Source of the DNA: Paracyclopina nana | Lineage: Eukaryota; Arthropoda; Copepoda; Cyclopoida; Cyclopettidae | Length of the DNA stretch: 64,000 nucleotides | Assembly (NCBI GenBank): GCA_019096065.1 | Contig: JAGUCH010000001.1 | Coordinates: forward strand, 6,696,001-6,760,000 | Direction: 5' to 3' | Part shown: positions 10,801 through 52,245 of the stretch, one piece after another | Numbering within the stretch: the stretch's first letter is position 1 | Layout of the letters: every line of letters begins with the position of its first letter | The notes under the pieces: generated by a model | What the model was told of the DNA's origin: nothing | The model's database searches: none | What the model saw: only the letters and a program-made list of their open reading frames with translations | Position numbers and translations under genes: made by a program

Positions 10801-13800
10801 TTCATCAGTTGTTGTTCACATAATTGTATTTTGCGCCGACTTGACAAGAGCAAATAGCATTTTTTTGCTTCCTCGGTTTTCTTAAATGACTCTCTGGCTT
10901 AGTCTCTTCTGGAGATTTCATAGTGACCAAGCCACGGTCATTATCGATTCTTATGTAGTTCCATCGCAACCTACTCAGTACATAAGAGACTAAGCCTCTA
11001 TCTCGAGTTGTTGTCCAATTTTCGTGACTACAAAAAGCCGGACTAACCACCAAATAAAGCATTATTTTGCGGCAAGAGGCGAACAAAAACTGTATTACGG
11101 ACCCCCAAAGATGTCCAGCTACAGCAGCAGCTCTTTCTTTTCTGCGATGGATAAGATCTTTCCTTTATCTTATGGTCATGGGTTGGGGCAATTTAATGGG
11201 ATGACGTTGGCGAATTCTGCCATATCGACTTCTCAAGCAGTAATGTAATTAAAGCTCACTAGACCTTTAAACGTGCATTAAGATGAAGCAACAATTTGCG
11301 TTCGACATTTGCTTTGTGCAGCTCTCTCAAGAGAGGGAAAAGTCTAATGAGTCGCATTATAACAGCTAGTAGCTATTTATCTGGAGAGCTTTGCGAGCAA
11401 TTTCTAAGGGGGGTCAACAAAAGCATGCTGCACAACTCAAAATGCCACCCGTCTTCAAGTAGTGAAATTCGACATATGCATTGTGTTTCCTAGCCTTTTG
11501 TAAACATTTGTTCTGCACTGAAAAACAACACTTTGCTTCTCAGCGTTGCTGGCAACTGGAAATCACAGAGGCAACTAAAAAATCAAGATATTAAGTAGTG
11601 CTACAACAACTAAAGGCTATACTACTGTACGGTAGCACCCCGAAAAGGAAAGTGGTGTTTTGACCCCCTGGCGCTTGTGGAAAAGGGGGCTCTAAATTGG
11701 AAATGTCATCATCAGCTCAGTTGTTAACAACAAGTGCTCTAGGATACCCAATTGGCATGGCCGAATAACTAGGTTTTCCTCTGCTATTGCTTTAGCGTTC
11801 ACGCTTTCCGCTCACGACGAACAACTACTTTCCATTAGAGCTGGTAATTTGATAGAGTTCTAGAGCATTTCCAGAATGCGCCACTCTATGCTCCCAAGAG
11901 ATGCAAAATGCCCCACATATATACAGCACAATATCATCAAGTTGACATTTATGCTCCTCCCACTTCGCTATTTAGCCATGTTGAGAGATGCAATTTATTT
12001 CATGAAAAATCTGCCAATGATGTTTATTGGAAATACGACCCCCAGACCTAAAGTGTTTTCCTCTCTTTTGCAGTGACCCAGCTGTCGGCAAGTGCTACCG
12101 ATGCATGGTGATCTACGAGAAGCACTTCAATGTCCTCCAATACAAAGAGAGTGAGTTGGGCAATAACCCATTATTTGCCATTGACAGGACTTATGATTCA
12201 ACTCTTTCAGGCTTCTGCGAGGAATCCATCGAATCCATGGAATCCCTGTGCAACACCATCACCGGAGATGCTCCTCTGTACACAATGTTCAGGAAGGACG
12301 CTGAATTGGTGAAATGTCCTTTCAAAGGGCCTCACAGTTTCAGCTACTCAAAGGGAGCTTCAGGACAAGTGTGCAAATATCCAGCCTCTTTCATGGACAC
12401 TTGCAGCGACAACAAGAGGCTGCAACTCAGATATCAAGCCTGCTTGGATGTTGAAGGATCTGAAATATCGAGTAAGCAGAGCTCTCTGTCAATTAACCCC
12501 CAGGAATGTTTTCCCCCCGACTAAAGTTAGCTAATGAAGCTTAAAAAAGTTGGGAGCTTTGTTTGCTTCGAAGCCTTCAAGCAAGAGAGAGAGAGAGAGA
12601 GAGAAAAACCGAGACAGACAGGGAAAGGCAGGCCGCGGGAAAATTCAAACACATTGCAGCTACTCCCCCACTTGACACATAAGCTGCAATAGCTTGTTTA
12701 ATCAAAGCAGCCATTTCATGTAAATGGACTCCATTGCGGTCGAGAAAATGTGTGTAAACCACATTTTGCCCCATCTTTTGGGTTACAACATTTATGACCC
12801 ATACCATATCTTGTGTATATTACATGTTTTTGTAGCTTCCCCCTTTCCTCCCTCCCAAAAAAGGCTTCTAGAAGTATATATAAATATAGTTTGCATTTCA
12901 TACAGATATAGATCGCTGTAGCCATTTTGAACATTGTTTTGTGCTTGGGGGGTTAGAATCTCGGCAGATTTATGCAAAACCCAGGATTTACCATGGATCT
13001 TCGTTTATTCTTTCAGCCGAAGAAATGGCTTGTCTAGCCACTTGGAAAGAGGGCTCCTCTCGCTATTTAGTCTCAATTTTGAACGACAGCCATGTCTACA
13101 CCGACGAGGCTCGATACCGATGCTTCGTATACCAAAAAGTCCACAACGGTGACGAGGGTGTGGAGACGTTCAAAATGGCTCAAAATCTCTACGCCACTTG
13201 CTTGGGCTTGTGGAATGTCAACGAAGGCCACAAGACGTTCACCATGACAAAGTGTAAGCAACACAATTCTACTACAGAGAAAACCTCTCAGCCTAATTAC
13301 TGAGAACACATGCATGCAAATTTGATGAAAATACTGCGATGGCTTCGAGCATCTCAATTTTGGGCCCTCTCAGTTGGCTTTAATAAAATTTACGCTTTTG
13401 GGTTTCAGTGGACAGTGATACGAAGTGTTCTTTCCCGCATTTCATGCACAATCATCATGACTGGCACTCTGTGGATGGCCTGATCTCCATGCATGTGAAC
13501 AAACGAGGCCACAGCTTGCGGCTGCGCAACCACACGAGGCTGGCCTCGCTTTACGAGGCCACTGAATTCCTCGAGTCCCATGCCACCTGCCACAAAGTTG
13601 AGACTGGCGGCCTCAACTCGCCAGTGACCCGCATCGTGGCCCACGTCAAGGCCGGATGGTAAGTACACAGTGACCCATAAAAACCGTAATAACTTTCCAA
13701 ATGGGCTGCTGCTGCACCAGCATCATCATCTCAAAAGTGGTGGAAAGTAGGCCTTGGAGGCGAAAGCTGCTCACCTTTTTATTTTATGGCATCCCATAGC

Positions 13801-14745
13801 ATGCTTTTTGAAAACGTGAAGGGTTGGCTAAAAGCCCACATTAGATATGCAAAGAGATGCCGTCGCTAAAGTACAGAGAGATGACACACGAGCAGATCTA
13901 ATATTTATCTGACCCCATTGTTTTGGGGTCGCAGGGTATTGCTGCCATCAGTCAGTAATGGATCCCTTTTTCTTGTGGGTATACGCATTGCGTCTATTCC
14001 ACAAAAGAGTTTTGCACCAACATTTATCCCCAATTTTTCCTACCTTGCAGTGATAGCGGCTACGTCTGCATGGTGTTCTACAGCCAAGACAAACATGTGA
14101 TCCAAATGCGCTACGGTACGTAATTCTTGGCCTTTGCCGGTAAAGCTCATTTACGTATGAGACTGCAATTTAGGTGACAAATCAACCAACCCCAACGAGG
14201 CATGCATGAACTACTACTTTGACCCCATCAATTCCCCCATCATCACACTCGTCTCGGATGGCCACAACACAAGGCCGTGTCCCTTTTCGGGACGCTACAC
14301 TCTCTCGGGGCTGGGCGGGTCCATGTCCGCCCTTATGTCAGGCCAACTTAATTGCCATCAGGCTGTCATGCATGCGGGTTGCTCAGCCTCCGACGACCTC
14401 ATTGTCGAGTCCGTCTGCTCCAGAAACCTTGAGGACAACGTGAGGACCAAGTGGTCGTGCCACGGGCGCTGGAGCTCCCACGACGATCGGCAAATGCTGG
14501 TCCTCTCAACGCCCCTTTTCGAGGGCCAAGCTGCGAATTTCGTCTGCCTCACCTACACGGATCGGGAGGGCATTTTGACAGCCTCAGCCTCGATGAACTC
14601 TTGCCAGTTTTCAAGCCATCAAAGGGGCTTCAATATCACGTCGAGTGGGCCCTGCTTGCAGGCCCTAACTGGAAGTGGTCCTCGAGTGGCCCGACCAGAG
14701 TGGACAATTATTGTGCTGCTGCTCCAGAAAATCCTCCGATTGTGA
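7810..14745 (+). CDS. Secreted Cys-rich arthropod protein (DUF7042/7043/7044-type), possibly GPI-anchored
   Basis: Function unknown. Eight exons: 7810-7879, 9747-9897, 12074-12150, 12211-12471, 13017-13253, 13409-13658, 14051-14115 and 14174-14745, all GT-AG and phase-compatible, giving 560 aa. Residues 1-23 are a signal peptide. The mature part opens with C29-E-F, then WMGRWFQSS at 35-43, followed by KCYRC at 80-84 and VIYEKHFNVLQYKE. Further Cys-containing modules follow, such as CPFKGPHSFSYSKG and YVCMVFYSQ. The repeated layout matches my memory of arthropod proteins annotated with Pfam DUF7042 to DUF7045; this is recall, not a search. The end is a basic spacer followed by about 15 hydrophobic residues (WTIIVLLLQKIL), which could be a GPI-attachment signal. 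The many Cys fit an extracellular disulfide-bonded protein. Introns 1 and 2 are about 1.9 and 2.2 kb; intron 2 carries a MITE at 10896-10996. Exon structure is well supported, function is not. Confidence 0.85.
10896..10996 (-). mobile_element. Foldback MITE, internally deleted copy (101 bp)
   Basis: Ends are GGCTTAGTCTC and its complement, flanked by TCT on both sides (10893-10895 and 10997-10999). It equals the reverse complement of the 145-bp element at 57574-57718 with a 44-bp piece of one arm missing and one base difference avoided by orientation. The deletion junction falls at short AGA/GA homology. It sits in intron 2 of the secreted Cys-rich protein gene. No coding capacity. Confidence 0.85.
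12584..12604. repeat. (GA)n microsatellite
   Basis: About ten AG/GA units in a row, in the intron after exon 4 of the secreted Cys-rich protein gene. Confidence 0.9.
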
Positions 14746-29365: not shown

Positions 29366-29367
29366 AA

Positions 29368-29384
29368 CCCAGCGAACCCTTTTC
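29368..29384 (+). repeat. Left terminal inverted repeat of the 8-kb transposon
   Basis: Perfect 17-bp match to the complement of 37319-37335. Sequence diverges immediately inside. AA precedes it at 29366-29367. Confidence 0.9.
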
Positions 29385-30028
29385 TTAGTAGGGTAGTCGG
29401 GAGGAAGCCGGGTCAAAGTCGGGGCTATTGGTAACTTTGAAAGGCATTTTTTATTATGGCAAGCGTAACAAAAAAGTTAACAGAAAGTCGCCTGCTGAAA
29501 GCACTTATTTCTAGCTTTGTAGAAGTTGATTGAAAGTTGATTTATTTTCAGAAACGCGTCCCCAAACGCGATGCTGCCAAAGGCGTTCGGAAGTCAACTT
29601 TTTAACATCAAAAAGTCACATGAATACACCTCGAAAAGCCGCATCAAAGCCGTTTGGAACGAGGCCAAATCCGAGGCCGAAACCTCCAAATCGAGGCCGC
29701 ACTAACTTGTATTACCACTGAGATATACAAAAATACAAATTCCTTTGGAAGTCTAATGGAATTGGACACCATGTTTGCGTTTTTTGGAGGCTCTATTTGA
29801 GCACGACTTCGAAAATTCCTGGATTAACATTCTTTTAAAAACACTTTCGATGTTAATTCTAGGTCATGTGTTTATTTTTTTAAGACATAAATGCAGTTTT
29901 ATAATATTGACATGTCACACGAAATTTGACTATTTTTTACGAAAATAAACTTTCCTGACTACCGAAGTGAAAACGAAGCTGCCGTATTTAAACTTGCGCA
30001 GTTAACTTCGTTGCATACACATAAGTAA
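29385..30028. other. Left subterminal region and 3' flank of the accessory gene
   Basis: No coding exon. Scattered AAAAAGT and AAAGTTGA-like motifs recall the right end but are sparser. GAGGCC occurs several times near 29669-29699. Some of this should be 3' UTR of the minus-strand accessory gene. Confidence 0.5.
29871..29876 (-). terminator. Polyadenylation signal AATAAA of the accessory gene
   Basis: The complement of TTTATT lies about 155 nt beyond the accessory-gene stop codon, inside the transposon. Confidence 0.45.
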
Positions 30029-33000
30029 TTAATTTTTCTTCTTGATTTGGCGTTCAATTGCAAGCTGCTCCTTGATCTCGGAAGGGTGGGTGTGGCTGGA
30101 GCCCTCAATGCCCACAAGCTCGGCAGCAGCATCCTGTAAAGGTAATTAGGAGCGTGAATTATTTATGCGTAACGCAATATTTGCTATACATTTGCAAAAT
30201 TTAAAGTCAATTTGAGCTACGTACAAAGTTTGTACGTAAGTAACATGAAAGCAATAATATGATTTCATTATTGTGAGTGCAAAATAAATTCAAATTGCGT
30301 TTGCATAAATAAAGATGGACTCGAGGGAGGAAAAAGAAAAGGTCTTACATCAATCGCAGTACGTCCTGACTGAGTGAGCACCTCGTTGCCATCATCCTCG
30401 TCCTCAGGCTCATCCTTAGGCTCTTCAATCTCACCCTCATCAGTGGCCTCCGAGCTTGAAGCCTCGTCGTTGGAGGTCCCAGCGGCTTTTGATGGAGTTT
30501 GGCTGCCGGCCGTAATTTCCTCGTCAGTGCCAGAGTCGGTGTTTGACTTGATTCGAACCATGTAATTGGGCTCATGAGGATATTCGCGCACGAGGTCATC
30601 CAAGGAATTCATGTAGTCGTTCAAGACTTTCTTGTACACCGCTTTTAACTGCAATTGGACGTGCATATATATGAATTCCGTAGGAAAGAAGAAAATGCAA
30701 AAATGACTTACGTCAGGCACTTGGTCATCAATGTTGTCCCAGGTGAGCTTCGTAACGTCTTCCTTCTTTGCAGCCGCAGCAGCAACGATGATCTTGATGG
30801 CATCGTACTTGGTGTAAATGTTACGCGTGCAGGCATTGCCCCTGAAGCCATCAAAGATCTTGTCATTGGCTGGGAACACGTTGCCCTCGACCCATTTGTC
30901 ATCCTGACCACTCACTGCAGCCTTAGCCTCTTTGCGGTTGTCAATGAGGTTCTGAGAGTAGTCCTCCTTGTTTGGTGCGACAACCTCTGGAATAGCGTGC
31001 TGCAATACAAATACAAATTAATGTAGATGAGCATTAGCTACAAAACAACACATCTAAAGCCATTTGGATGTAACTAATCTAAGGATTTTACCGTGTTGTA
31101 GATGTGGAATTCGTTGTCCACATTATAAAGAGCATCAAAGCCTTCCTCAGGGGTGAATGTCTTCTTGAACGCCCATTCAAGCTGCTTCGAACGAGAGTTC
31201 GTAAAGCGCCTGCTCATGATCTTCCGCACGGCTTTCCAATTCAGCACAAGATGTGCATTGCGCAGCTCCATTTCCTTGATGACAAAGGGAATGACAATGG
31301 TCTTCAAGATCCTCTCGACCGGCTCAGGGACAGACCTCTTAAAGTATTGGATCTGGTCCTCACTGAAAAGTAGGTACTTATGCAACTTGTCTAAACTCTA
31401 AACGACTTTGGAAGCGTCAACACATCTAAACTTAGAACAGACTTACCTAATGGGGTGCTTCCACACAAGGTGTGCCATTGCCATGCGAGTAAAAAAGGCA
31501 TTGGTGAAGGCAAAGGCGACTTTAGTGTTGGCCTTCTCGGTGATGCCAGACAACTCATCCTTCAAAAAGTGAATGATGTTGTTCTGAACAAAATGCGACG
31601 CAAAAAAGATGTCGCAGGCCGGACCCATGTACTCAAAGGGAACCATGCGCGCCAAAATTCCCATGGAACGGGATTGGTAGTCCGCTTGGAACTCACGCAT
31701 TTTCGACATCTCCGAGCGTATAGCAGCATTTTGCAAGCTGAAGTCGCCAATTGCAGTCTTAATGATGCTGCTGTCTTCGAGGAGCTTCTACTCAATTGGA
31801 AGTGGTTTCGAAATTGTTTGCAAGTTACAATAAAAGTTACTTACCGCAACTGCAGCGCGTTTGGCAATATTGCCTTGGCCGGCGATGACTTTGCCAATCT
31901 CAGCACGAACATACTCTTGGATGCTGGTTTGCATGACGTCCAGCTTGGGCAGAATTGTGGCATCAACAATAAATTGCAATTGCTCACGAACGACTTCCTT
32001 CATAGTCTCCGAACGAGCAGCAACCTCGAAAAAGTCGACGAGGAAGCGCCCCATCATTGCCTCCAATTGCTCCTGAGTGGCAACTAATCCCGTTTGGATC
32101 ATGTCCGGCGGCTAAGAAATGCAAAATGAATTAAGCAATGAAACGTAAAACGTGACATCTTTGCATTGGAATGAATTTAAATGCACAAAGTACTTACAAA
32201 GCCAACTGGAACCTCGACATTGGTGACCGTTTCAGCTGATGATGGTTCATCAGTAGTCTCCATTGGTTCAGCCGTAGCAGAGGCTGGCAACTTGGGCACG
32301 ACCAAAGGCTTCGCCTTCGCCAACTTCTTTGCTGGTGAACCACCGCCAAGCTTGACATCGGTAACTTTGACCGAATCATCAGATTCCGAATCGCTTTCGG
32401 AGACATATTTTCTCTTGCCGCTTGTCCGGGCAGAGGATGGCTTCTTAGCAGCCGTCTTGGATGCCGATTTGGTCGCTTTGGCTGCCTTTGCTGCTGATGC
32501 GGCCTTAGATGTTGATGGCTTCGAAGCAGCTGCAGGAGTCGCCGTTTTTCCACTAGGAGTGGCAACTTTGCCCGTCTTCTTGCCTCCGCTAACGTCCTTC
32601 TTCACAGGAGTTGCCTGTTGTTCGGGCGTGAAGAAAGGATTGTCCAAGAGCTTCCCAGTTGGACCAATACTCTGTAAAGCAATTAAAAGTTGTTAACGTA
32701 AGGCAAACTTTACTTGCTGAAGACCTAATTGATTACCTTACGAGCCTGAGACTGGCTTGGGCTGACACCAGCCGATGAGCATGACGAGCTCGAAAGTGGC
32801 TTTGAGCTGCCTTTCTTCTTCTTTGCGAAGATCTCCTCCTCCGACGATTGGAGTTCTTCATCGCTCTCCTCGGTGCCAGTTGGTGGGGGTTGCTCTTTGG
32901 CCTTTGAGCGAGTTCCAATGGCATTCCATTTCTTGTACAGGATCTTGCCGGTCAAAGGATCCCTTTCCTCATACGTCCAGTCCTTGAGGAAGCGTTCGCC

Positions 33001-33478
33001 CCAATTCCTGATCAGGGTCATTTTCATTTTCGACCTTTCCGCAAAGTTAAGGCCCTGGAAACGACTGTTGAGGTCGTTGACGACGGCGGCGACCCTCTTC
33101 TCATCCGTACCTGAAAGAAATATAGAAAGTGTCAGAGTTTGGCGTTACTTCGAAATGCGATTGCTACTTACGAGTTTCGACACGGCAAAAAATGGACATT
33201 TCCTTTGGCCCATCACGCTCATCGAGGACAAACTTCCCCGTCTTCATCCTTGAGGCGGGATTCATCCTGAAGTAAGGATTGAATCCAACGATGTCCACGT
33301 ACCGCTTCGAATCCTTTTCGAAGCGCTTATTCACCGGCAAAGTTGAAACCGGCAACTCATCCTTGAGGCAAAAGACAATGTACTCGTCGTACACAATGCT
33401 CGGGTTGTCTGGAGGCGACGAGGTCCCTTCCTGGTCACGAGTGGGGCCTTTAGCAGCCTTTGGAGCCTTGGGAGGCAT
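30029..33478 (-). CDS. Transposon accessory protein, 908 aa, unknown family
   Basis: Family not recognised. Nine exons: 33478-33172, 33110-32737, 32671-32198, 32111-31845, 31787-31447, 31362-31092, 30999-30712, 30648-30349 and 30133-30029. All junctions are GT-AG and phase-consistent; introns are 57-92 bp except the last (215 bp). Residues 1-20 are basic (MPPKAPKAAKG). Residues about 28-160 look globular, with IVYDEYIVFCLKDELP and NWGERFLKDWTYEERDPLTG. Residues 251-315 are an H1-like Lys/Ala/Ser/Thr linker ending in the likely nuclear signal GKRKYVSES. Residues about 386-680 are mostly helical and probably partly coiled-coil, with MREFQADYQSRSMGILARM and FKRSVPEPVERILK. Residues about 830-865 are acidic. 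It lies head to head with the transposase inside one element. By analogy with CACTA elements, which carry a DNA-binding partner (TnpA) with the transposase (TnpD), it may bind ends or regulate transposition; that is inference. Confidence 0.85.
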
Positions 33479-33675
33479 CTTCTTGTTTTTTCAAGATGGC
33501 GGAAAATTTCGTTTTCGAAAATTACGTCTTCTCACGTAGGTGTGCTGCTGCAGACTGAGAAGCGCGTCGGCAGTCGTTGGCGGAATGATTCCGTTAACCT
33601 GGGCAGAATTGGCCGCACTGGGCTGCCCAAGAGTTGTTAGGGGCGGCGGCGTAACATTTTCCGCCAAATCGTCGC

Positions 33676-33683
33676 TGACGTCA
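33676..33683. promoter_or_regulatory. CRE-like palindrome TGACGTCA
   Basis: A perfect 8-bp match to the CREB/ATF consensus inside the shared promoter region of the transposon. It also lies within the upstream open frame 33715-33491. Binding is not shown. Confidence 0.4.
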
Positions 33684-34060
33684 CAGAACTTTCTAGCGAC
33701 TTCCATAGAAGTCAATAATTTTAATCGCTGATTTCAATTGGTAATTGATAATAAGTCATGGAGTTTTTATTTACGAATGCATTCGTAATTAAAATATTTA
33801 CATTTTAATTTCATAAAATAAGCGAGATGACGATAAAGTTCAGCATAAATGATGATGGAACATTGCTGTATAGGACACATCAAAGGGCGACAAGAAAATA
33901 ATCATAATTATTTGAAATTATGCATCAAAATTAGTTTCAAGTTATTTGCTTTCATAATTTAATAATTTTGTAATTTAATTACAAATTACTTTTTTTTTTT
34001 AAAGAAATATTTTTTTTCGTGACGCCCCTTTGGTCTCTGAAGTAGCGTGTTCTGAATTTT

Positions 34061-34066
34061 TCAGTT
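34061..34066 (+). promoter_or_regulatory. Candidate initiator of the transposase gene
   Basis: TCAGTT preceded by a T-run, 28 bp before the transposase ATG. It fits an arthropod initiator but could occur by chance. Confidence 0.3.
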
Positions 34067-34093
34067 ATTTCGCAATCGCAAATCACAACAAAA

Positions 34094-36891
34094 ATGCCGA
34101 AAGTTAAAGTGGGTGAAAAATCGCGTGCTGCTGTACGAATGGCCCGATACCGAACCCGAATGAGAGAAGCTCAACGGGAACTACGAGAAATGCAAAGACG
34201 TTGTGAAGCTCGAGTAAAGATTCTACAGCGATGTCAGGGAGAAGTCAGCGACGATGCGTGAGTTTCTATTAAATTTAATGACATATTGCATTAACTTTTA
34301 ATCACGTTTCAATTTAATTCAGGCGAGACAATGAGCTGTTCGGTGAGCACTTAAAGTTCTGCCCTTTTAATGACGATGATCCAGACCGCATTGATAAAGT
34401 CATCGTTGACTTAAGTGAGGCCGGTGACAATGAAGACAATGATGTCTATTACGACGCTTCAGAAGGAGAGATTGACCCAAATGAGCAAGTGTACGATGAG
34501 GATGTCCGTCAACGCAATGAAAAAGCAATTCGCAAGTCTTTGAAAAGGAAACTTGAGGAGTTGGGTACTATAGATCCAAACGATACGACACCAGAATTCA
34601 GCGATGACGAAATCAACGCCGAGAATGTGCAAGCATCGAATGGCCAAGAACTCACTGAGCCGAGTCCATTTTTCGATGAGTTGCCTCAAATTGTGAAAAG
34701 AAGAAGGCTTGAAAGTGAGTCGGAAGTTGTTGGCAGCCTTACTTTGGATGAGCCTCAAAGTGAAAACAACGAAACCGTAGATGTGTTGGCTGACATTAGC
34801 TTTGAAAGTAACAGCTCACTTCAATCTCAATTATTCGATCCTCGAAGACCAGTAATGGTCAATGGTGCCAGCTTGGATTTTGATGCGAATACTGAGCGCT
34901 ACAGAGAGGAGCTAAGAAACAACGACACTGAAAGTCAATCCAATGGTGAAGAAGAAGATGAGTTCTATGATTGTCAATCAGAAGTTGGTGAAGAGAGTCA
35001 ACGTATAGAGGATCCTAGGGAGGACAATGCAATTTTGATGCATGGAACAACCTTAAAGGATTTCCGTGATGCATTGGTCGAAGAGGAAGAGCTGGAAAGT
35101 CAGAAAGATCGCGATTTTGCATTATATGCTCGCTTTTTCTACTTGACGTCCCTTCTGGCTGTTACGGATCGTGCAGCGAAAGTCTTTTGGAATTTTGCAA
35201 GAGCCATGACTGACAGGAAACTTCTCTCATTCAAAGCGATAAAGAAAAGATTTGAAAAGAAAATACCAAAAGTGACTATGACTTATGAGTTTTTTGATAC
35301 CGTGGAGAAGAAGATAATGCATCATAATGGAAAGTCCTTTCCAAGGAAGAAATATCCCAGGCCGAGATACCTTCTATTGTCAGAGTGGTCAACTGTTTCA
35401 CTAGTGGAACTGTTCGAGTTCTTCAAGAGTGTACATCCACCAGGTTACAAATGCGAGTGGCATGGAAAGAAATATGTTGACTTATTCTTGGACGGAGTGC
35501 CGCTTTGCAAATCGTCTGATGCATCCATGAATGTGCTATGTGTTCGTTGTAATCCATGCCGCAAAGTATGGCCGCTAGCAGTGCACGTTTACAGAAAAGG
35601 CCACAGTACTGATATCGTTGATCTGACTTCTGATGTGCTTCAGCAATGTTACGACAATAACTTTATTGTCCGCAAATTTATCGGAGATAGCCCCATGCGC
35701 GCACGAATGAAGTGTTTAAAGCAGCACAACGGCTATGGAAGCTGCGAAATGTGCAAGGTCCATGGAGAATGGCTCAAGGACTTCAACAAGATGGCCTTTC
35801 CCGCTGACACTATGCACTCTGAGAAGCGGACTCATGATGAGTGGAAAGCAATTGCCACAAAACTCAGCGCCAATCCAAGATCGGTCACTAAGTCAAAGCG
35901 CTTTGGAATTAAAGGATACAGTCCACTACTTGACCTCGACTACTTCAACATCATTGATGACTTCGTGCCTGATCCAATGCATAACATATCGTTAGGTGTT
36001 TGCAGGCTATTGCTTCAATGCATTTTGGAAACCAACGGTAAAGGCGTGACGTCATCTAGAGGAGTTTCGATTGCAAAAAAGTTTGACGAGAAATGGGTTA
36101 ACTTAGACATTCCGAGAGAGTTCCCTAGGAGGCCAAGATCAATCAAGGACAATTTTGTCCACTTGAAAGCCTCAGAATTAATCGCCATTGTGTGCTGCGG
36201 CTTTACTTTGATGGGTGATGCACTACTGTCTTGGCCAAGTGGGCTTAGGAAGACATGGTACAGGTTCTCTTGGATTGTGCACGCTGCATTGATGCCCGAC
36301 ATTGTCTTCAACAAGATTATGGATGATGGGAAGGCAACCAGAAGCCAACTCAGGTTTTACGAGACATTCCAGAACACATTTGGAGTCGACAAGTGCCACT
36401 TTAATATTCATACCTTCTCGCATTTGCTCCAAATAAGAAAAATTGGTCCCCTTTCCGACTTCAGTGCGATGCCATTTGAAAGTTTCTTCTCCTACTTGAA
36501 GAAAATAATCAAACCTTATACTTTAAGTTTTGCGAAACAAGTCTTAGTCAAAACCTTCATCTGCAACATGAACAGACATCCGTGCGGCTACAAAGTCAGT
36601 TTGACAGCGAAAACGAAGAAAAGATGTGTAGACAATCTCATTGGGACTGTAGATGGTCTATTCTACTATGTGCATGACTTTAATGGTGATGTCTTGGAGT
36701 GCACTCAAGTAATGACGCAAGAGTTCTACACGCCTGATTGCCCCGAATTGAATTGGAGTGCCGTTATGGTCAAAGTGGTTGATCACGTTGATGATGAAGT
36801 CGTTCAAGTTCCTCGAAGCAAAGCAATTTTCAAGGCAGTTATTGCGGATAATGTCATTATCTCCGTCCCAAACGACGTCTATTTCACTTAG
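34094..36891 (+). CDS. DDE transposase, tnp2/CACTA-like (CMC superfamily), 910 aa
   Basis: Cuts and joins transposon DNA. Two exons, 34094-34257 and 34323-36891, with a 65-bp GT-AG intron, give 910 aa. The short first exon supplies an Arg-rich helical start (RYRTRMREAQRELREMQRR) and continues exactly in frame. Residues about 56-285 are acidic and low in complexity. The catalytic part runs from about 300: DGVPLCKSS with D445, IGDSPMRARMKCLKQHNGYG with D510, a CEMC zinc-type pair just after, DPMHNISLGVCRLLL at 605-619, and FESFFSYLKKIIKPY with E774. The order of an acid before PL, GDSPMRA, HNGYG-C-x2-C, D-x-M-H and F-E-x-F is what I know from animal and plant transposases of the tnp2 type. D445, D510 and E774 are the best DDE candidates but are not proven. 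No stop or frameshift is seen, so it should be functional. Confidence 0.9.
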
Positions 36892-36950
36892 GAAGTCAAG
36901 TATGATATGTCCATTTTGTGTAGCGTTCCTGTAAAAGTCAAAATTTAAAA

Positions 36951-36956
36951 AATAAA
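36951..36956 (+). terminator. Polyadenylation signal AATAAA of the transposase gene
   Basis: Lies 60 nt after the transposase stop codon, inside the transposon. Confidence 0.6.
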
Positions 36957-37029
36957 CAATTCCAATTTGCTTTTGAAACATATTTGACATCACATATGAA
37001 AATTTAAGGAATTTCATTCTAAACGGCAA

Positions 37030-37318
37030 TTCCTAAATTTTAGCGAAAAAATTACAAGTCCCAACTTTTTCCCGGCTTTGACAAAAGTACTTCCTAAGAA
37101 GTCGCAAAAAAGTCATCGTTTTTTCAAATTTTGCGTGCAACTTTTTTGTGGCTTTGAGAAAGTAATTTCGAGCTACTTCTAAGTAACTATGAAAAAAGTG
37201 CTTTTTTAGAACCCAAAAAAAAGGACTTTTTTTTAACATCTAAACAGCTTTGAAATTCAGCTGACGCAAAGTCAAAAAAAAGTTAAAAAAAAGCACTTCT
37301 GCCTCTATACCAAATTCC
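37030..37318. repeat. Right subterminal repeat cluster of the transposon
   Basis: Motifs of the type AAAAAAGT and ACTTTTTT recur about seven to nine times in both orientations, often next to GCTTTGA or AAGTRCTT. Examples lie near 37107, 37139, 37192, 37226 and 37273. Dense subterminal repeats are typical of CACTA-like elements, where they bind the accessory protein. The match to that role is inference. Confidence 0.6.
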
Positions 37319-37335
37319 GAAAAGGGTTCGCTGGG
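37319..37335 (-). repeat. Right terminal inverted repeat of the 8-kb transposon
   Basis: Exact complement of 29368-29384, followed by AA at 37336-37337. Confidence 0.9.
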
Positions 37336-37337
37336 AA

Positions 37338-51497: not shown

Positions 51498-52245
51498 TTT
51501 TATGCACTTAAACCGAATTTCCAAGTGAGTAATGAACTTGCCGAAATCAAGCGCAATTTCATAAGGGGCCGTGAACTTAAGGCATGCCGATTCCTTGGTG
51601 GGAATTGCTCAGAGATCTGAAACTTTGCATAGCTATAGAAATGTGGAATCCAAGCATGACTTAAAAGTAACTTTTTTCCAAAAACGCAATATATTAGGAA
51701 ATAAATTAATTATCAATTTAGCGTGTTTTCTGAAATAATCCAGAGATGGCTCTGCTATCTAGAAACATTGCTCCCCTCTTTAGCCTGATCAAGAACTACA
51801 AACCATAACAAAGTAGCTGAGCGACTGCCTAACACCTAACAGTAAGCAGCGGCAGCAGTAGTGAAAAAGTGAAAAATCATTGGAAAAATGGATTGAAGAG
51901 GCCAAGAAAACTACAGCGGCCTCGGAAACGTCAGGTATCCCTGCTTATGACAAGTACTTGACCAAGTTGGTAAAAAGTAACCCTAGGGTTCTCATTTACC
52001 ATTTACTAAGTAAAAAGTAACCCTAGGGTTCGCATTTACCATTTACTAAGTAAAAAGTAACCCTAGGGTTCGCATTTACCATTTACTAAGTAAAAAGTAA
52101 CCCTAGGGTTCGCATTTACCATTTACTAAGTAAAAAGTAACCCTAGGGTTGTCATTTACTTCATAGCGCATCGGGAGTGCAAAAAAGCTGAGTCAACCGG
52201 CAAAGTGAATTACTCACGAGGAAATTCGGTTTACAGTGCGTAAAA
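51498..52245. mobile_element. 748-bp element with about 45-bp imperfect inverted ends
   Basis: The left end TTTTATGCACTT continues into ACCGAATTTCC and GTGAGTAAT. The right end carries the complement of these, reading ATTACTCAC, GGAAATTCGGT and AGTGCGTAAAA. It contains the 40-bp tandem array at 51971-52160. No protein-coding frame. Confidence 0.7.
51971..52160 (+). repeat. 40-bp tandem repeat, four units and a partial fifth
   Basis: Units start at 51971, 52011, 52051, 52091 and 52131. Each contains the 12-bp palindrome AACCCTAGGGTT followed by CATTTACCATTTACTAAG. Units 2-4 are identical; unit 1 differs at one or two bases and unit 5 diverges after the palindrome. Confidence 0.95.

What the first reader, a model, noticed from the sequence alone, without database searches (positions are those of the whole stretch)
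29368..37335. Complete two-gene DNA transposon with divergent genes and non-CACTA ends
Seen: perfect 17-bp inverted ends, AA on both sides, an intact 910-aa transposase and an intact 908-aa partner transcribed away from a shared promoter. Known: plant CACTA elements carry tnpA and tnpD in one transcription direction, and their ends begin CACTA. Here the genes diverge and the ends begin CCCAGCG, so this may be a distinct lineage within or near the CMC superfamily. No decay is visible, so the element may be active.
Basis: partly seen in the sequence, partly recalled or inferred. Interest (0 to 1): 0.8.

Follow-up and report, generated by a model that had tools for sequence, protein, structure and literature searches.

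The report
Two-gene animal CACTA-like jumping gene
This is a complete, apparently recently mobile DNA transposon in an arthropod-like genome, one of many diverged relatives there, most of which were found to carry a transposase plus a second, oppositely oriented gene of unknown function; its ends match a kind of animal transposon described in 2006, while the paired second gene is the less familiar part.

Summary
Window 29368-37335 is a 7,968-bp DNA transposon with perfect 17-bp inverted ends (CCCAGCGAACCCTTTTC), an AA duplication, a 910-aa transposase and a divergent 908-aa, nine-exon partner. In the host genome (92 Mb, arthropod-like) the same ends bound at least 22 full-length and 9 short copies; 28 of 30 with both flanks read show matching flanks of 2 bp or more, 25 of them exactly 2. 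A copy inserted into a close relative gives an exact empty site. A second locus is 99.3% identical, with both genes open and constrained. The transposase has the invariant D-D-E, C(2)C and H(3)H residues of the EnSpm/Mirage/Chapaev/Transib (CMCT) clade. CCC ends with 2-bp duplications are not new: they mark animal 'TRC' elements (SmTRC1, 2006). What stands out is the partner: a divergent partner hit lies beside 71 of 93 transposase loci, across lineages with different CCC ends. Best reading: an autonomous cut-and-paste transposon working like En/Spm, the partner probably a TnpA-like helper binding subterminal repeats (inferred). A new variant of a known kind; whether the partner is described elsewhere could not be tested.

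The parts
29366..29367 (.). target-site duplication AA, left
   Evidence: 2-bp TSD rule from 30 copies and an empty site
29368..29384 (+). 17-bp terminal inverted repeat CCCAGCGAACCCTTTTC, left
   Evidence: 23 exact matches genome-wide, 0 for the reversed control
29385..29767 (.). left subterminal region rich in AAAGT/ACTTT words (putative helper-binding sites)
   Evidence: 7 words here; 123 over 20 ends of this family
30029..33478 (-). partner gene, 9 exons: 33478-33172, 33110-32737, 32671-32198, 32111-31845, 31787-31447, 31362-31092, 30999-30712, 30648-30349, 30133-30029; 908 aa, no significant Pfam match
   Evidence: 10 synonymous versus 4 nonsynonymous differences to the sister copy
33479..34093 (.). 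615-bp gap between the two start codons, presumed bidirectional promoter
   Evidence: position only; promoter activity inferred
34094..36891 (+). transposase gene, exons 34094-34257 and 34323-36891; 910 aa; presumed catalytic D445, D510, E774 and C529, C532, H608, H751, H755, invariant in 11 aligned sequences
36936..37318 (.). right subterminal region rich in AAAGT/ACTTT words
   Evidence: 9 words here
37319..37335 (-). 17-bp terminal inverted repeat, right
37336..37337 (.). target-site duplication AA, right

Best explanation
An autonomous, cut-and-paste DNA transposon of the EnSpm/CACTA-Mirage-Chapaev-Transib (CMCT) clade, sharing its terminal hallmarks with the animal 'TRC' (CACTA-related) elements. 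Shown: one mobile unit bounded by CCC...GGG inverted ends; it inserts at varied dinucleotides, usually duplicating 2 bp; it has moved recently enough to leave a 99.3% identical second copy; copies insert into one another; both genes are open and constrained. Inferred: the DDE transposase (910 aa) cuts at the CCC ends and joins them with a 2-bp stagger; the divergent 908-aa partner works like plant TnpA/Tnp1, as a DNA-binding helper and regulator that gathers the repeat-rich subterminal regions, so that each element carries a two-component machine; the short 1.1-1.6 kb copies are mobilised in trans. The confidence given is for the transposon core; for the partner's helper role alone it is about 0.55.
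For: Unit: 31 paired copies with the same ends; 28 of 30 with both flanks read match over >=2 bp (25 exactly 2), against 85 of 870 unrelated flank pairs; on C8 a copy sits in a closely related copy and the uninterrupted target, CT once, is found in the inner copy. Other lineages: 19 of 20 elements with CCCCACTAAGTGTT- or CCCMACCAGAAWTTC-type ends have 2-bp TSDs. Clade: D-D-E, C(2)C, H(3)H and a third H invariant in 11 sequences, the set given for CMCT (passages). Constraint: transposase 5 synonymous/2 nonsynonymous, partner 10/4 to the sister copy, binomial P 0.005 and 0.0001; w 0.044 to C4:3997121 over 1,068 bp. Partner belongs to the unit: divergent hit beside 57 of 78 plus 14 of 15 further transposase loci, the two query copies among them; two of the loci without a hit, read directly, have it (L066, L135). 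Subterminal words: 123 AAAGT/ACTTT in 20 ends versus 29 in the flanks and 53 +/- 7 in shuffles. Maize En/Spm needs both a transposase and a subterminal-binding protein (PMC2613891, passages).
Against: No Pfam transposase family (Transposase_21, Plavaka) is among the matches listed for any of 11 members at E<=10 (HMMER's filters drop most weak matches); the profile finds no PDB chain; the single-sequence fold failed (pLDDT 35), so the DDE fold rests on motifs alone. Nothing shows that the partner binds DNA: its only Pfam match is insignificant (E 2.7). The subterminal words come from related copies, so the enrichment is not independent evidence. 22 of 93 transposase loci had no partner hit (two read directly do have one, 20 unread); 13 partner loci had no listed transposase. 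2 of 30 elements lack a simple TSD.
Confidence: 0.8

Rival explanations
1. The partner is not a transposition helper but a counter-defence or regulatory protein (for example blocking host silencing), carried like the TET/JBP genes of fungal transposons.
For: No significant domain match; accessory non-transposase genes are known in CMCT elements of fungi (PMC12730594, passages); its lysine/alanine/serine-rich middle could bind chromatin as well as specific DNA (inference from the sequence).
Against: Found head to head with the transposase in several deeply diverged lineages with different ends, which fits a core transposition function better than an optional cargo.
Confidence: 0.25
2. The element is a plain member of the known animal EnSpm/TRC families, second gene included, and already stands in Repbase under an EnSpm name.
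For: CCC ends, 2-bp TSD and 5-9 kb size match TRC elements (passages); a 9.2-kb Aedes TRC would have room for a second gene (inference).
Against: Passages read on SmTRC1 describe two ORFs in tandem from spliced transcripts, not a divergent gene; no Transposase_21 hit here. Repbase could not be searched, so this stays open.
Confidence: 0.4
3. The lineages persist because transposase copies serve the host (domestication) rather than by transposition.
For: Very low dN/dS between copies in one genome: dN 0.068 with saturated synonymous sites to C2:12182624, w 0.044 to C4:3997121.
Against: Copies keep both ends and TSDs, insert into one another and have short derivatives, as mobile elements do; selection through transposition or repeated entry from other species would give the same pattern.
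Confidence: 0.05

Closest known systems
Animal TRC elements (SmTRC1 of Schistosoma mansoni; TRCs of Aedes aegypti and Tribolium castaneum; Spongebob/EnSpm-4N1_HM of Hydra)
   Same: TIR begins CCC (Aedes CCCAGTCAAC, Hydra CCCAGCCAACATTGAC), 2-bp TSD (7 of 14 copies in S. mansoni), 5-9 kb, CACTA-related (passages of PMC1636069 and PMC4298943)
Plant CACTA / En-Spm
   Same: Two element-encoded proteins, subterminal repeats, short non-autonomous derivatives, transposase of the CMC type (motif set)
   Different: Ends CACTA, and a 3-bp TSD in the soybean Tgmt* example; transposase and TnpA come from one transcription unit in one direction (PMC2613891 and PMC1636069, passages)
Plavaka (fungi)
   Same: CMCT motifs; 2-bp or 2-3-bp TSDs (PMC12730594, passages)
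   Different: Ends TGT..ACA or CATCA..TGATG; no Plavaka model among the Pfam matches listed
Transib/ProtoRAG
   Same: C(2)C and H(3-4)H between second D and E; ProtoRAG is a two-gene element (recalled)
   Different: 5-bp TSD (recalled); RAG1-like and RAG2-like genes lie tail to tail (recalled), here head to head; the profile matches no PDB chain at E<=10

Membership tests
[quoted passage not shown]
   eight such residues invariant in 11 aligned transposases; motif definition from PMC12730594 passages and figure legend; that these are the catalytic residues is inferred from the motif
[quoted passage not shown]
   25 of 30 exactly 2 bp, 2 of 30 three bp, 1 five bp, 2 none; 19 of 20 in other lineages 2 bp
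[quoted passage not shown]
   ends are CCCA or CCCC in this family and in the 7 of 9 sister pairs whose end was resolved; the source calls CA..TG usual, not obligatory
[quoted passage not shown]
   no Repbase or eukaryotic protein set on hand
Animal TRC elements | TIR beginning CCC | tested here: met
Animal TRC elements | 2-bp TSD | tested here: met
Animal TRC elements | Transposase_21 (PF02992) domain / similarity to the SmTRC1 protein | tested here: inconclusive
   no match in 11 members at E<=10 nor in the genome at E<=1, but that search's 14 controls were silent and the SmTRC1 protein was not available
Plant CACTA sensu stricto | ends begin CACTA | tested here: not met
   one sister lineage has CACTA only from the fourth base (CCCCACTAAGTGTT)
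Plant CACTA sensu stricto | tnpA and tnpD in the same direction | tested here: not met
   partner divergent in the window and at 71 of 93 transposase loci; no partner hit found at the other 22, two of which have it divergent on direct reading
Plavaka | ends TGT..ACA or CATCA..TGATG | tested here: not met
   against passages
ESTA | TA target-site duplication | tested here: not met
   ten different dinucleotides among the 28 matching flanks
Mirage | ends, TSD and transposase type | not tested
   no reference sequence at hand

The most novel reading that the evidence does not exclude
A deep, undescribed lineage of animal CMCT transposons defined by an obligate head-to-head partner gene: a two-subunit transposition machine whose 908-aa partner is a new protein family, kept through divergence down to about 31% transposase identity and several changes of the end sequence.
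Probability: 0.35. Interest if true: 0.6.

Novelty: new variant of a known kind. Interest (0 to 1): 0.42.

Why it matters
In the papers reached here, animal CACTA relatives are far less worked out than plant ones. A genome with at least 93 transposase loci, most of the listed ones open, several lineages with different ends and short derivatives, and a partner gene recurring through them is a ready system to ask whether animal EnSpm-type elements need a second protein as En/Spm does, and how helper, ends and subterminal repeats change together.

Tried and rejected
Single-sequence AlphaFold2 of the transposase C-terminal 561 aa gave pLDDT 35 and pTM 0.22, so no fold search was made. Pfam, NCBIfam and PDB searches of the transposase gave nothing usable; weak hits such as Tricorn_C1 (E 0.002) and, in one of 11 members, rve (E 0.058) were taken as chance. 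Searches for relatives in viral contigs (55 pattern matches, none confirmed), prokaryotic genomes (68, none confirmed) and phage records found none. Rfam found nothing in the window. Host: 80 Chitin_bind_4 matches, 0 of 14 controls ringing, suggest an arthropod; no 7tm_6 insect receptor and no Blo-t-5, but the controls of those two were silent too, so they exclude nothing firmly. Considered and rejected: chance inverted repeat; viral element; host gene pair by accident between repeats (22 of 22 full-length copies have matches to both genes). Paper searches aimed at a divergent second gene (12 of 25 papers listed, 1 paper) showed no such report in titles or abstract starts, which is weak evidence since most papers are not held.
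Full report
The thing itself. The window is bases 6,696,001-6,760,000 of contig C1 of a 91.95-Mb genome in 10 contigs. The transposase start at 34094 and the partner start at 33478 are separated by 615 bp and point away from each other.

Copies and boundaries. The 17-mer occurs exactly 23 times in the genome, its reversed control 0 times. Ends with up to 2 mismatches (the list of 3-mismatch places was cut and not used) pair into 22 elements of about 8 kb (7,861-8,797 bp, one of them 16.5 kb because another copy sits inside it) and 9 short elements of 1.1-1.6 kb (one of them also holding a full-length copy). All 22 long ones have a transposase match and a divergent partner match. Of the ten loci that cover the short ones, one had a 29-aa partner match and one had transposase from the nested copy. 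Both flanks were read for 30 of 31 pairs. By simple matching 25 have exactly 2 bp, 2 have AAT on both sides (or AA plus one extra T), one has 5 bp in a repetitive stretch, and 2 do not match; unrelated flank pairs match over 2 bp in 85 of 870. One of the two failures, inside a short element, is explained by a related uninterrupted copy (L039): 2 bp duplicated plus a two-base filler.

Empty site. On C8 a full-length copy is inserted into a closely related copy. The uninterrupted target, with CT once, is present in the inner copy itself, 78 bp around the site being identical. This shows one insertion of the exact unit with a 2-bp duplication.

Age and function of the genes. The copy at C4:3466871-3474840 lies in unrelated flanks and differs from the window copy at 55 bases and 4 gap columns of 7,971. 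In the transposase there are 5 synonymous and 2 nonsynonymous differences, in the partner 10 and 4: fewer amino-acid changes than expected without selection (binomial P 0.005 and 0.0001). The partner is therefore very probably a real, selected nine-exon gene. To C4:3997121 (98% protein identity) a 1,068-bp stretch gives dS 0.38 and dN 0.017; to C2:12182624 (90%) synonymous sites are saturated with dN 0.068. The genome thus holds old, strongly constrained lineages. Long persistence with rapid loss of dead copies, or repeated entry from other species, would both give this; the data do not separate them.

The lineage. Two transposase searches list 93 distinct loci: 78 (79 rows, two pieces of one copy merged) and 15 more. 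These are lower bounds: only 78 of 236 and 77 of 242 first-look candidates were scored, and scoring the best first favours intact copies. Five of the 93 have in-frame stops and several more are partial. Partner searches (50 of 601 candidates scored, 150 of 153) put a divergent partner hit at 57 of the 78 and 14 of the 15; the copies that supplied the queries are among them. None of the 21 loci of the 78 without a divergent hit had a partner hit in another arrangement within 7 kb (for the 15 only divergence was checked). In an earlier count 96 of 100 partner rows lay divergent to a listed transposase. By identity to the window transposase: 25 of 25 at 55% or more, 7 of 16 at 40-54%, 25 of 37 at 30-39%. 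Two of the loci without a hit were read and do have the partner by direct comparison: C2:15865108 (L066) and C2:11856354 (L135); the other 20 were not read. Thirteen partner places had no listed transposase; one of them (C1:8286737) lies inside an element with paired ends, the rest were not followed up. The partner's core, P(F/W)xxMGxxxD(I/V)FFA, is shared by the window, L066 and L065.

Ends across the lineage. Comparing near-identical copies at different places resolved the transposase-side end in 7 of 9 pairs (in the other two, similarity ran through the fetched stretch). All 7 end in CCC: CCCCACTAAGTGTT (two pairs), CCCCACCAGAATTTC, CCCAACCAGAAATTC, CCCCACTTCTGC, CCCCACTACC, CCCCACGAACCC. 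With up to one mismatch, CCCCACTAAGTGTTS has 92 matches against 4 for the control and CCCMACCAGAAWTTC 724 against 14. Of 20 such elements read at both ends 19 have an exact 2-bp TSD; the exception may be a wrong pairing of ends.

Clade. In 11 aligned transposases (ten of them 31-90% identical to the window's) the residues D445, D510, C529, C532, H608, H751, H755 and E774 are invariant. This is the D-D-E, C(2)C, H(3-4)H set with 2 C and 3 H given for the CMCT clade in PMC12730594 (passages and figure legend). No Pfam, NCBIfam or PDB search recognised the family, and structure prediction from one sequence failed.

How it probably works. For maize En/Spm a transposase (TnpD) and a subterminal-repeat-binding protein (TnpA) are both needed, and defective elements move in trans (PMC2613891, passages). 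Here 383 bp inside each of 20 ends hold 123 AAAGT/ACTTT words against 29 in equal flanks and 53 +/- 7 in shuffles, although the ends are related to one another. By analogy I take the partner as the subterminal binder and regulator; this step is inferred, at roughly 0.55.

Comparison with what is known. The CCC end and 2-bp TSD are the published hallmark of animal TRC elements (PMC1636069, abstract and other passages) and of Spongebob (PMC4298943, passages). So the 'non-CACTA ends' are ordinary for animals. A conserved, head-to-head second gene is not mentioned in the passages read, and two paper searches (listings only) showed no report; Repbase could not be searched. Hence: a new variant of a known kind, with moderate interest.

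Noticed in passing
window 12021-14742 (+): Reading frames matching Pfam DUF7042, DUF7044 and (below cut-off) DUF7045; with 80 Chitin_bind_4 matches genome-wide this points to an arthropod host.
   Followed up: partly
genome C2:2564546-2588434 (L083, L084): Three related transposase-partner units, with CCCCACGAACCC ends read at two of them, lie head to tail about 8.3 kb apart; at the one junction read (L083) seven bases separate two elements.
   Followed up: no
genome-wide, CCCMACCAGAAWTTC: 724 matches with up to one mismatch to the ends of one sister lineage against 14 for the control, far more than its listed transposase copies, suggesting several hundred short non-autonomous elements.
   Followed up: no
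L087-L106, ends of the 46% clade: Nine of ten left ends read CCCCACTAAGTG (the tenth CCCCACAAAGTG): CACTA follows three C's, a possible link between the CCC ends of animal elements and the CACTA ends of plants.
   Followed up: no
window 51970-52159: Tandem array of a 40-bp unit, 4.8 copies, 98% matches.
   Followed up: no
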